DNA of 35,506 nucleotides from Lachnospiraceae bacterium (GTDB lineage: Bacteria > Bacillota > Clostridia > Lachnospirales > Lachnospiraceae). A program made the translations under genes and the position numbers. The stretch lies in assembly GCA_017478245.1 (NCBI GenBank), contig JAFVDW010000096.1, positions 1 through 35,506 on the forward strand. Reading direction: 5' to 3'. The notes beneath the pieces are model-generated. The model worked only from the letters and a program-made list of their open reading frames with translations. It was not told the origin of the DNA and ran no database searches. This document shows positions 24,951 through 35,506 of the stretch, in pieces; position 1 is the first letter of the stretch; every line of letters begins with the position of its first letter.

Positions 24951-25124
24951 AAGTGTGTGATAGATAGCGCACACTGAGAAGCAAGCAGAGTATCCACTCT
25001 CACCTTACAGCTAGCGGGCTAGTAAGCGTTCATATCTTATCTAGATACAGCGGACATTTATGGATTGTTGTGTTTTGGTAACAGATAGTGGTGGATAGCG
25101 ATGCTATCCATTTTTTATTATTTT
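24951..25124 (+). ncRNA. L20-type ribosomal leader with attenuator
   Basis: A 5' leader before infC. It contains a GTGTG/CACAC stem and, at its end, a terminator: TGGATAGC (25092-25099), GAT loop, GCTATCCA (25103-25110) and a T-run. TATCCAC at 24991-24997 can pair instead with GTGGATA (25091-25097), giving an antiterminator. In Bacillus the same operon has a leader where excess L20 favours termination. The location and alternative pairing support the same control here. Assignment to the Rfam L20_leader family is inferred, not searched. Confidence 0.75.
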
Positions 25125-25144
25125 CTTTCATGGAGGGTAAAGCC

Positions 25145-33140: not shown

Positions 33141-33307
33141 GAACCCCAAAAGGCAAATCAAAGTCAAATTGAGCAGGGCAGAGCGGAAATGATGTGAGAA
33201 TTGAAACAAATTTCCGGAGACCTCCCCCAGGGGTCTGTGGGGATACTGGGGGGCGGTGCAACTGAGCAGGGTAAATAGTGAAAAAAATAAAAAACGAGGT
33301 CCAATGC

Positions 33308-33880
33308 ATGAAATACGGGGTAGGGTATCATTCAAAACCTTCAAAACGATATGGTGATACAAATGATAAATGCTTTTTAACATGGAGAAACATGTTGAAA
33401 AGGTGTTATTCTTTAGAGGATAAATATAAAAACTATAGAGACCTTGGAATTACCGTATGTGAAGAATGGCATGATTTTTGTGTTTTTGAAAAGTGGTTTG
33501 ATAGAAACTATTATGAGGTGCAAAATGAGGAAATGCAGTTGGACAAGGATATATTAAACCATGGGAATACAATTTATTGTCCAGAAAACTGCATCTTTGT
33601 TCCAAGGAATATAAATGCATTATTCATCAAAAGCAGAAACAGGAGGGGTGATTTACCAATAGGTGTCAGCTACAGTGAAAAACATCGATGCTACATTTCC
33701 TGTTGCAGTGTGTATGGTAAAAATATTAAGGGTCTTCATAAAGATATAATTTCTGCATTTGAAAGATATAAGTCGGTGAAGGAAGATTATATTCACACTG
33801 TGGCGGAATCATATGCAGGTAGGATACCACATAGGTTATATGTCGCAATGATGACATATGAGGTGAAAATCACAGATTAA
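33308..33880 (+). CDS. HNH/AP2-type phage endonuclease-like protein
   Basis: 190 residues. The N-terminal part (TWRNMLKRCYSLEDKYKNYR, ITVCEEWHDFCVFEKWFDRN) and the core LDKDILNHGNTIYCPENCIF match the many phage-borne HNH proteins with NUMOD/AP2 DNA-binding parts. The usual LDRIDNNGNY is replaced by LDKDILNHGN, so the catalytic His-Asn arrangement may differ. A C-terminal AP2-like segment is GDLPIGVSYSEKHRCYIS. The ATG at 33308 has GAGGT 7 nt upstream; an in-frame GTG at 33278 does not. Possibly a free-standing homing endonuclease. Confidence 0.78.
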   Translation: MKYGVGYHSKPSKRYGDTNDKCFLTWRNMLKRCYSLEDKYKNYRDLGITVCEEWHDFCVFEKWFDRNYYEVQNEEMQLDKDILNHGNTIYCPENCIFVPRNINALFIKSRNRRGDLPIGVSYSEKHRCYISCCSVYGKNIKGLHKDIISAFERYKSVKEDYIHTVAESYAGRIPHRLYVAMMTYEVKITD

Positions 33881-34537: not shown

Positions 34538-34611
34538 GCTCCCTTAGCTCAGTTGGTTAGAGCATCCGGCTCATAACCGGACGGTCCCGGGTTCAAGTCC
34601 CGGAGGGAGCA
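34538..34611 (+). tRNA. tRNA with anticodon CAT (Met type)
   Basis: 74 nt. The acceptor GCTCCCT pairs with AGGGAGC. The D arm is GCTC/GAGC, the anticodon stem TCCGG/CCGGA with loop CTCATAA, and the T arm CCGGG-TTCAAGT-CCCGG. The first acceptor pair is matched (G-C), so it is not the initiator type. Elongator Met, or Ile with a lysidine at C34. It begins 2 nt after the frameshifted gene. Confidence 0.93.
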
Positions 34612-35067
34612 TTTCATTCAACCACAGATGTGTGATAGGGCAGGCGTGGGGTCTATTGCATGATAAGGTTGTCTAAGAATCACGTCGGAAAGAAAGTGCT
34701 TACTTGCTTTCCATGTTTTGCATTACTCCTTTTCAGCCACTAGGACGATTCTGTAATGGGCGGTGCGAGACCGCCCGGTGGCTTTTCGGATGAGCAATTA
34801 AATACGACGTAAGAGACGGTAGCGGAATAAGGTTGTAATTCCTTGCCATAGAGCATGAGACAAGTCAGATAAATATCCGGGAGCAGCCCTGCCGATAAAC
34901 AACAGAAAATCATAACGTCTATCCTCATTCGTGAGTGCTGACTAACTGTTGCATAATCTCATTTGCTCATTCAATTCAATATTCAAAGCCGGTGCGTGGT
35001 CGTACAGGTAGCCGAATGGCAGATATTGAGCAACCCTGCACAGTCCTTGCAGACATAAGATGGAGGG

Positions 35068-35114
35068 TCTCCGAGATACGGTCTTTTTAGTAGGGTTCGA
35101 GTCCCTACCGGAGA
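35068..35114 (+). other. tRNA-like fold lacking D and anticodon arms
   Basis: TCTCCGA pairs with CCGGAGA (six of seven pairs). A perfect T arm follows (TAGGG-TTCGAGT-CCCTA). Only 16 nt (35075-35090) stand where D and anticodon arms belong. It lies inside the structured region. TCTCC can also pair with the GGAG just upstream, so two folds compete. Confidence 0.5.
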
Positions 35115-35272
35115 TAGCAAGGTTTGAGAGCAAATGAAACGATTTCCTAGTTGCAAAAACCAATAACGCCGATTCAGAAGCAGGCACTTAGTCGACAGGT
35201 GTTTGTAAGACGTTGGTAAAAAGCAAGGCCAAAATCAAGATGTGCTGTTTTCGGTGAACATGAAACCGACAA

Positions 35273-35356
35273 CGGAAAGTAGCTCAACGGTAAGAGCAGC
35301 GGTGCGCATCATAAAACAGGGAGAGCAAGATTGACGTTCGAATCGTCACTTTCCGA
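35273..35356 (+). other. tRNA-like element with unpaired anticodon region
   Basis: The acceptor CGGAAAG/CTTTCCG is perfect. The D arm is GCTC-AACGGTAA-GAGC, and the T arm TGACG-TTCGAAT-CGTCA. The 34 nt between D and T arms (35298-35331) are purine-rich and form no anticodon stem that I can find. TTTTT follows the discriminator A. A decayed tRNA, or the 3' domain of the structured RNA. Confidence 0.6.
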
Positions 35357-35409
35357 TTTTTGTGAACGCTAGTGTAAAATTTTTGTAGGAAAAATAAATA
35401 GACATAAGA

Positions 35410-35477
35410 AGAAAGCACCAACTTTGTGTTAAGATTGAGTTGACAAGACAAAATCCAAACAAAGGAAGGTGCTTTCT
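35410..35477. repeat. Inverted repeat around the upstream region of the last gene
   Basis: AGAAAGCACC (35410-35419) and GGTGCTTTCT (35468-35477) are exact reverse complements. TTTG and CAAA continue the pairing after a short gap. The right arm touches the ATG at 35478. Possibly the edge of an insertion sequence or an operator. Confidence 0.6.
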
Positions 35478-35506
35478 ATGATTAATAGTATACAACAGTT
35501 TTGTCA
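35478..35506 (+). CDS. Start of a gene cut by the window edge, possible transposase
   Basis: Only MINSIQQFC is visible. AAAGGAAGG lies 8 nt before the ATG, and the inverted repeat adjoins it. The setting at the border of an element suggests a transposase, but nine residues are not enough to tell. Confidence 0.35.

What the first reader, a model, noticed from the sequence alone, without database searches (positions are those of the whole stretch)
34612..35361. About 750 nt of non-coding, heavily structured sequence after tRNA-Met: candidate large ornate RNA
The stretch has no credible ORF but at least eight strong local or nested stems, two tRNA-like folds and a 3' T-run. Known large phage-associated RNAs (GOLLD, ROOL) are of similar size and lie near tRNAs in Firmicutes phages and prophages. 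The sequence could be a divergent member or a new class ending in a tRNA-like domain. The stems are seen directly; the class is a hypothesis.
Basis: partly seen in the sequence, partly recalled or inferred. Interest (0 to 1): 0.82.

Follow-up and report, generated by a model that had tools for sequence, protein, structure and literature searches.

The report
Phage array of anticodon-less tRNA mimics
Next to a phage tRNA gene lies a chain of small folded RNAs, including tRNA look-alikes that have lost the part that reads the genetic code; relatives occur in other gut-bacterial phages and, for one element, in soil-bacterial phages, so it is a real RNA feature whose job is unknown.

Summary
In detail: 34612-35361 lies after tRNA-Met, looks non-coding and holds RNA folds that covary. 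It is neither ROOL nor GOLLD by Rfam, and probably not one ornate RNA but a mosaic array. I read 13 other related loci, four of them in Lachnospiraceae or this genome's family (the other hosts are unnamed), and 3 Gordonia phages. Modules recur in different combinations: a head hairpin (34630-34661), a three-way-junction module A (34736-34782), a sequence-conserved leader B (core 35036-35064), a minimal tRNA-like fold (35067-35115) and a 3' tRNA-like element E (35273-35356). E keeps acceptor, D and T arms, but its anticodon loop is cut to 2-4 nt and a conserved single strand follows. E's core is identical at 25-27 of 31 aligned positions between these arrays and Gordonia phages, while acceptor columns are 17% identical yet still pair.

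Best explanation: one tRNA-island transcript, cut by RNase P and RNase Z at real and anticodon-less tRNA folds, releasing small RNAs, some perhaps acting on translation (an anti-Shine-Dalgarno-like stretch precedes module A). Transcription, processing and function are inferred. Whole-length fold energy is only mildly unusual (z -1.30).

The parts
34538..34611 (+). canonical tRNA-Met (CAU), first element of the island
   Evidence: ARAGORN; Rfam tRNA 73.9 bits; also in C55 and L048
34630..34661 (+). head hairpin: 10-bp helix (34630-34639 with 34652-34661), loop unchanged in the 3 sequences aligned
   Evidence: 30 of 30 cells paired, 5 pairs vary on one side, none on both; alignment; energy alone not unusual (z -0.52)
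34683..34715 (+). hairpin just upstream of the pyrimidine stretch; sequence variable in relatives
   Evidence: fold z -2.87 (the piece of C55 folded there was cut too short to test its counterpart); alignment
34726..34733 (+). CTCCTTTT, anti-Shine-Dalgarno-like strand before module A (CTCCTTTC in several relatives)
   Evidence: the 16S 3'-end form was found in 3 of 21 genomes searched, not in this assembly
34736..34782 (+). module A: three-way-junction fold with 5-bp closing stem, 3-bp hairpin, 6-bp stem with 7-nt loop
   Evidence: covariation; model R1 74.5 bits (built from it); weaker variants in L026, L050, L020
34978..35064 (+). module B region; core 35036-35064, a likely 5' leader of the next tRNA-like fold
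   Evidence: 86.5% to phage Dulem virus 39; core in 8 loci, 6 of them found with the core itself as bait
35067..35115 (+). minimal tRNA-like fold (acceptor, one small hairpin, T arm; no anticodon arm); its 3' half matches a larger Leu-like element of L048
   Evidence: 29 nt at 96.6%; fold z -2.17; sub-threshold mascRNA-menRNA match E 1.7
35273..35356 (+). element E: tRNA-like, acceptor, D and T arms kept, anticodon arm shortened, followed by a conserved single strand
35299..35329 (+). conserved core of E (shortened anticodon arm plus expanded variable region)
   Evidence: 25-27 of 31 aligned positions identical between 6 copies of these arrays and 3 Gordonia copies; pattern searches

Best explanation
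This is a phage tRNA-island array. One transcript carries a real tRNA-Met, several small structured RNA modules and tRNA-like folds that cannot read codons. The tRNA-like folds keep the acceptor and T arm (E also the D arm), the parts that RNase P and RNase Z recognise, and act as punctuation: their excision sets the ends of the modules between them and yields a set of stable small RNAs. E itself is a further product, a tRNA-shaped RNA whose anticodon loop is gone and whose variable region carries a conserved single strand. The likely target is the host translation machinery during infection, suggested by the tRNA shape and the anti-Shine-Dalgarno-like strand before module A. Shown: modules, covariation in A and E, different module combinations, shortened anticodon loop, conservation of E between phages of two host phyla. 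Inferred: single transcript, processing, stable products and target.
For: Homologous arrays. Covariation in A and E. Different module combinations in the 16 regions anchored. E core 25-27 of 31 identical between these arrays and Gordonia phages, the Gordonia copies having been found by BLAST and not by the core pattern, although acceptor columns are 17% identical; host phyla Bacillota (L048, an Acetatifactor MAG) and Actinomycetota. E pattern in 6 contigs of the viral collection and in 1 of 392 genomes of the order, this one, at two places, reversed control 0. Other tRNA-like folds without a normal anticodon loop: Val-like with 5-nt loop in L048 and, by eye, L026 and L028; by eye UUCG-capped in L026 and L028 and GACG-capped in two Gordonia phages, where ARAGORN gives no amino acid. 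The B core ends about 2-4 nt before a tRNA-like fold in 6 of 8 loci (L050 and L027 by eye only, the other four with ARAGORN or a fold). mascRNA shows that a tRNA-like fold without a normal anticodon arm is cut by RNase P and RNase Z through its elbow (PMC11693755, passages).
Against: No expression or processing data. Whole-length fold energy is only mildly unusual (z -1.30). The anti-SD-like stretch is weak in 2 of 11 module A copies (C55 5 nt, L028a 4 nt), and the copies are related, so the shuffle test overstates it. In 2 of 8 loci (Dulem, L049) no tRNA-like fold was recognised right after B. The window copy sits beside a frame-broken phage gene and is cut off downstream by a repeated sequence, so this copy may be dying. 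About 34786-34965 and 35119-35268 have no BLAST match at E up to 0.05 in the other 15 regions. Relatives are rare: R1 rang only in the own genome among 100 of the family.
Confidence: 0.5

Rival explanations
1. tRNA decoys: the anticodon-less folds bind and occupy host enzymes that attack or modify tRNA in phage defence, without offering a cleavable anticodon.
For: Elbow and acceptor kept while the anticodon loop is cut down; a gene annotated rtcB lies near the array in Dulem virus 39; a RelE-like gene lies in the C55 prophage.
Against: Does not explain modules A, B, C and the head hairpin; rtcB seen in one locus only; no search for defence enzymes of the host was made.
Confidence: 0.2
2. One large ornate RNA of the ROOL or GOLLD style, with the tRNA-like fold as its 3' domain.
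For: Size and phage tRNA-island setting; GOLLD is reported near tRNA islands, with phage tRNAs sometimes in its linker (PMC12286853, passages).
Against: No Rfam match. Modules combine differently between loci: A-B-E here, A-C-E in C55, C-D-E in L032 and L033, A-B-V-A2-R in L026. Pairing between distant modules was not tested across the relatives.
Confidence: 0.15
3. Decaying tRNA gene cluster: pseudo-tRNAs and spacer debris with no function.
For: The neighbouring phage gene is frame-broken; many tRNA-like pieces; poor conservation between modules.
Against: Compensatory changes in A and E; the non-tRNA core of E is more conserved than its acceptor stem across host phyla; E also occurs in complete Gordonia phage genomes.
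Confidence: 0.1
4. DNA-level role: the conserved blocks are recombination or homing targets that reshuffle tRNA cassettes.
For: Mosaic order; HNH endonuclease gene at 33278-33880 and genes annotated HNH in the Gordonia islands; B core nearly invariant.
Against: Compensatory base-pair changes are an RNA-level signature. B core invariance is partly by selection of the bait.
Confidence: 0.05

Closest known systems
GOLLD RNA (Rfam RF02032)
   Same: Phage or prophage RNA of unknown function near tRNA islands, sometimes with tRNAs in a linker (passages of PMC12286853)
   Different: No Rfam match here; recombining modules instead of one conserved 3' region; an anticodon-less tRNA-like element is the most widely shared part
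ROOL RNA (Rfam RF03087)
   Same: Similar length, phage, often near tRNA islands (passages of PMC12286853)
   Different: No Rfam match in the window, and none listed in the relatives scanned; none in this genome
mascRNA / menRNA (Rfam RF01684)
   Same: tRNA-like fold with acceptor, elbow and T arm but no normal anticodon arm, cut out of a longer RNA by RNase P and RNase Z (PMC11693755, passages)
   Different: Come from human nuclear long RNAs; only a sub-threshold match of the minimal fold (E 1.7); analogy, not kinship
Transfer RNA (Rfam RF00005)
   Same: E scores 44.1 bits, above the gathering score of 29
   Different: Anticodon arm skipped by the model; loop of 2-4 nt; long conserved variable region
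Phage T4 stable RNAs C and D (recalled; one search found no paper)
   Same: Stable non-tRNA RNAs inside a phage tRNA cluster, function unknown (recalled)
   Different: No sequence comparison made

Membership tests
ROOL (RF03087) | reaches the curated Rfam score (99.1 bits) | tested here: not met
   No match in window at E up to 10; 0 in own genome, the search rang in 1 of 150 family genomes
GOLLD (RF02032) | reaches the curated Rfam score (150 bits) | tested here: not met
   No match in window at E up to 10; own genome 0, but nothing rang anywhere in that search, so it has no positive control
GOLLD / ROOL | expression rises on lysis (GOLLD); cage-like homo-oligomer | not testable with these tools
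   needs RNA and cryo-EM
tRNA (RF00005), element E | curated Rfam score (29 bits) | tested here: met
   44.1 bits, E 5.1e-08
tRNA, element E | anticodon arm with 7-nt loop | tested here: not met
   the model skips the arm or loop; alignment shows a 3-bp stem with 4- or 2-nt loop; ARAGORN at 90% gives an undetermined type for L022, L031, L032, L048 and two Gordonia copies, Ala (cgc) for the third Gordonia copy, and no gene at E for window, C55 and L033; at 85% it gives Phe (aaa) on shorter, shifted pieces of window and C55
tRNA, element E | aminoacylation and decoding | not testable with these tools
   needs biochemistry
mascRNA-menRNA (RF01684), fold 35067-35115 | curated Rfam score (42.5 bits) | tested here: not met
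   16.9 bits, E 1.7

The most novel reading that the evidence does not exclude
Phages of Bacillota and Actinomycetota share a dedicated non-decoding tRNA-shaped RNA (element E) that is released from tRNA islands, in the Bacillota case together with an anti-Shine-Dalgarno-bearing module, and the set acts directly on ribosomes or tRNA enzymes to take over translation: a tRNA island that is in part an island of translation-control RNAs.
Probability: 0.2. Interest if true: 0.85.

Novelty: new variant of a known kind. Interest (0 to 1): 0.6.

Why it matters
Phage tRNA islands are usually read as codon-supply devices (established view, recalled). Here a tRNA-like element without a normal anticodon loop keeps its odd core across phages of two host phyla while its stems turn over, so something other than decoding is under selection. 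It adds a compact, testable set of RNA modules to the phage tRNA-island RNAs of unknown function (GOLLD, ROOL) and gives annotators a reason for tRNA calls of undetermined type in phages.

Tried and rejected
Rfam for the window and relatives: besides tRNA, only flanking, sub-threshold or plainly spurious matches were listed. ORF explanation: rejected. T-run as terminator: rejected, not conserved. Plasmid collection: no match to the array nor to the E core. Model R1 across 100 family genomes: only the own genome. R1 with default filters over 11 sources found the six sequences it was built from and one match at E 3.8, not the variants. The link between module A and its variants was first seen by eye; with filters off on short stretches R1 puts the L026, L050 and L020 variants first at the same coordinates (E 0.006, 0.001, 0.017). 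The second L028 copy and the L027 form were not scored that way. Likeness of the E core to the 16S 530 loop was thought of and dropped without a test. Palindromic anticodon loop of E as a kissing site: left open, since a short hairpin is palindromic by nature. Eight of the ten genome hits are 23-41 nt at E 5e-4 to 7e-3; not followed, probably chance. Counts of relatives are limited by bait: L026, L027, L028, L048, L049 and L050 were found with the B core itself. R. gnavus phages (L034, L036) and two human-gut phage records (L035, L055) were fetched; L034, L035 and L055 were read and showed by eye ordinary tRNAs or no clear module; L036 was seen only as an annotation table. Pfam was never searched with success (one search failed); gene names rest on PHROGs and record annotation. 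Fold searches and structure prediction were not used.

Mistakes: one search used a wrong accession recalled for GOLLD (it was a group II intron family). One search had two hand-typed rows (Dulem, L027) that did not match the loci; they were not used for counts. MAFFT placed gaps badly in the E variable region, so understates its identity (0.65, and 0.55 for the single strand); realigns the core.

Literature: ten searches, seen as listings with the starts of abstracts; three of them found nothing. No listing named anticodon-less tRNA-like elements in phage arrays; that is all that is claimed about print. Passages were read of PMC12286853, PMC5559632 on Gordonia phages, whose passages name no odd tRNA, and PMC11693755.

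Full report
What was checked. The stretch 34612-35361 follows tRNA-Met 34538-34611. By eye no ORF in it is shared with its closest relative beyond a few residues over one conserved block, and no Rfam family other than tRNA is convincing. Its fold energy alone is only mildly unusual: z -1.30 against -3.25 for relative L048 and +0.78 for one coding control. Comparison with relatives decides the matter.

Relatives. The same genome holds a second array on contig C55: tRNA-Met plus the 5' part at 90% and the 3' element at 89%, with a different middle. In 299 genomes of the family, 10 had a hit at E up to 0.01; apart from the own genome only G214 was strong. Phage Dulem virus 39 matches 34978-35064 at 86.5%. 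Pattern scans of the viral collection gave L026-L033 and L050; the one scan of genome contigs gave two contigs titled Acetatifactor, L048 and L049, a genus of Lachnospiraceae. L022, L029, L032 and L033 are near copies of one another (91-97% where BLASTed; L029 by reading), and L030 has the contig length of G214:C86, from which L022 was taken. I read 13 loci besides the window: C55, L020, L022, L026-L029, L031-L033, L048-L050. L048 is the closest full-length relative.

Element E. Window 35273-35356 folds as a tRNA with acceptor, D arm, T arm and canonical T loop, but the tRNA model skips the anticodon arm. In its place are GCGGU, a loop of 4 or 2 nt, a short 3' strand, then AAAACAGGGAGAGCAAG. 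The same element is in 18 Gordonia phage records (14 distinct names), annotated as tRNA-OTHER in 11, Ala in 2 and nothing in 5 (sequence read in three). In an alignment of 9 copies (6 of these arrays, 3 of the 18 Gordonia records; L029, L030 and L032 left out as near copies) 98.8% of cells pair and 10 of 19 pairs have changes on both sides, against 29-53% of cells when slid. Between the two groups the acceptor columns are 17% identical and the T stem 45%, while the core is identical at 25-27 of 31 aligned positions; one core pair (L048 against a Gordonia copy) scored 22.5 against a maximum of 14.5 in 2000 shuffles. The Gordonia copies were found by BLAST with L048, not by the core pattern. The core pattern occurs in 6 contigs of the viral collection, one of them with the length of Gordonia phage Cucurbita, and in 1 of 392 genomes of the order, this one, at two places, with the reversed control at 0. 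Gordonia terrae is Actinomycetota, Acetatifactor is Bacillota.

Module A and neighbours. 34736-34782 is a three-way junction. In 6 sequences all 14 pairs hold in every row, with 3 double-changed pairs; 1 of 500 shuffles reaches the covariation score, 35 of 500 the number of double-changed pairs, and all 500 the number of pair types. More distant copies in L026, L050 and L020 are the top places of model R1 with filters off, though not with default filters; the L027 form is by eye only. A short pyrimidine strand before it resembles the 16S 3' end: mean longest match 6.8 nt over 11 copies against 4.4 (sd 0.27) in 2000 shuffles, none as high, but the copies are related and two are weak, at 4 and 5 nt. 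The 16S-end form was found in 3 of 21 genomes searched, one of the same genus, and not in this assembly. A head hairpin at 34630-34661 keeps all 10 pairs in 3 sequences with five one-sided changes and no double change. The B core is shared by 8 loci, six of them found with it as bait; it ends 2-4 nt before a tRNA-like fold in 6 of 8, two of the six by eye only.

Other tRNA-like folds without a normal anticodon loop. The minimal fold 35067-35115 corresponds by its 3' half to a larger Leu-like element in L048. A Val-like element has a 5-nt loop in L048 and by eye in L026 and L028. By eye a UUCG-capped one lies in L026 and L028 and a GACG-capped one in Gordonia Bachita and PhinkBoden, where ARAGORN names no amino acid.

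Why an array. Anchors of the modules occur in different combinations in the 16 regions examined: A-B-E here, A-C-E in C55, A-B-V-H-E in L048, C-D-E in L032 and L033, A-B-V-A2-R in L026; the three Gordonia regions show E alone. Anchors are simple patterns and miss divergent copies. A single co-folded RNA would not be expected to tolerate such exchange. Conserved pairing between distant modules was not tested.

How it may work. RNase P and RNase Z read the elbow of tRNA. The human mascRNA, without a conserved anticodon loop, is cut in this way and is not charged (PMC11693755, passages). The folds here keep the acceptor and the T arm, and E also keeps the D arm, so cutting at their ends is the most economical reading. 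Function on translation is a guess from the tRNA shape and the anti-SD-like strand. GOLLD is said to bind ribosomes in pull-downs (PMC12286853, passages), which fits but proves nothing here.

State of this copy. The small phage gene upstream (34207 onward) is frame-broken in the window, while C55 and L048 carry it whole. The bases after 35368 recur near the ends of four contigs of this assembly, probably an insertion sequence. C55 lies in a fuller prophage with a terminase large-subunit gene downstream.

Verdict. A real, phage-borne, structured RNA array that is not in Rfam 15 apart from its tRNA-like folds; new variant of the phage tRNA-island RNAs. Confidence in the array-with-processing reading is 0.5; in any particular function it is low.

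Noticed in passing
window 33278-33880: HNH endonuclease gene (PHROG 953, E 8.1e-50) upstream of the array; genes annotated HNH also lie in the Gordonia tRNA islands, a possible agent of the mosaic.
   Followed up: partly
window 34207 to about 34535: Small conserved phage gene upstream of tRNA-Met is frame-broken here and whole in C55 and L048; only weak PHROGs of unknown function.
   Followed up: partly
window 35368-35506: Start of a repeat shared with the ends of contigs C98, C100, C94 and C74 (only 35368-35400 was compared): probably an insertion sequence that cut off the downstream flank and broke the assembly.
   Followed up: no
L020 2149-2232 and 4576-5781: Dulem virus 39 carries a RAGATH-27 RNA (77.2 bits) and a gene annotated as rtcB tRNA ligase beside its array.
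   Followed up: no
L021 7007-7066: Sub-threshold type-P1 twister ribozyme match (56.3 bits, cut-off 67.2, E 2.3e-10) in the C55 prophage contig.
   Followed up: no
window 24977-25125: Sub-threshold L20 leader match (30.2 bits, E 0.034) in front of what look like the IF3, L35 and L20 genes (translations, recognised from memory); an ordinary ribosomal autoregulation site.
   Followed up: no
L048 about 2920-2990; similar in L026, L028, L031, L049: Similar sequence downstream of the array looks by eye like a sigma-70 promoter for the next gene; cut off in the window.
   Followed up: no
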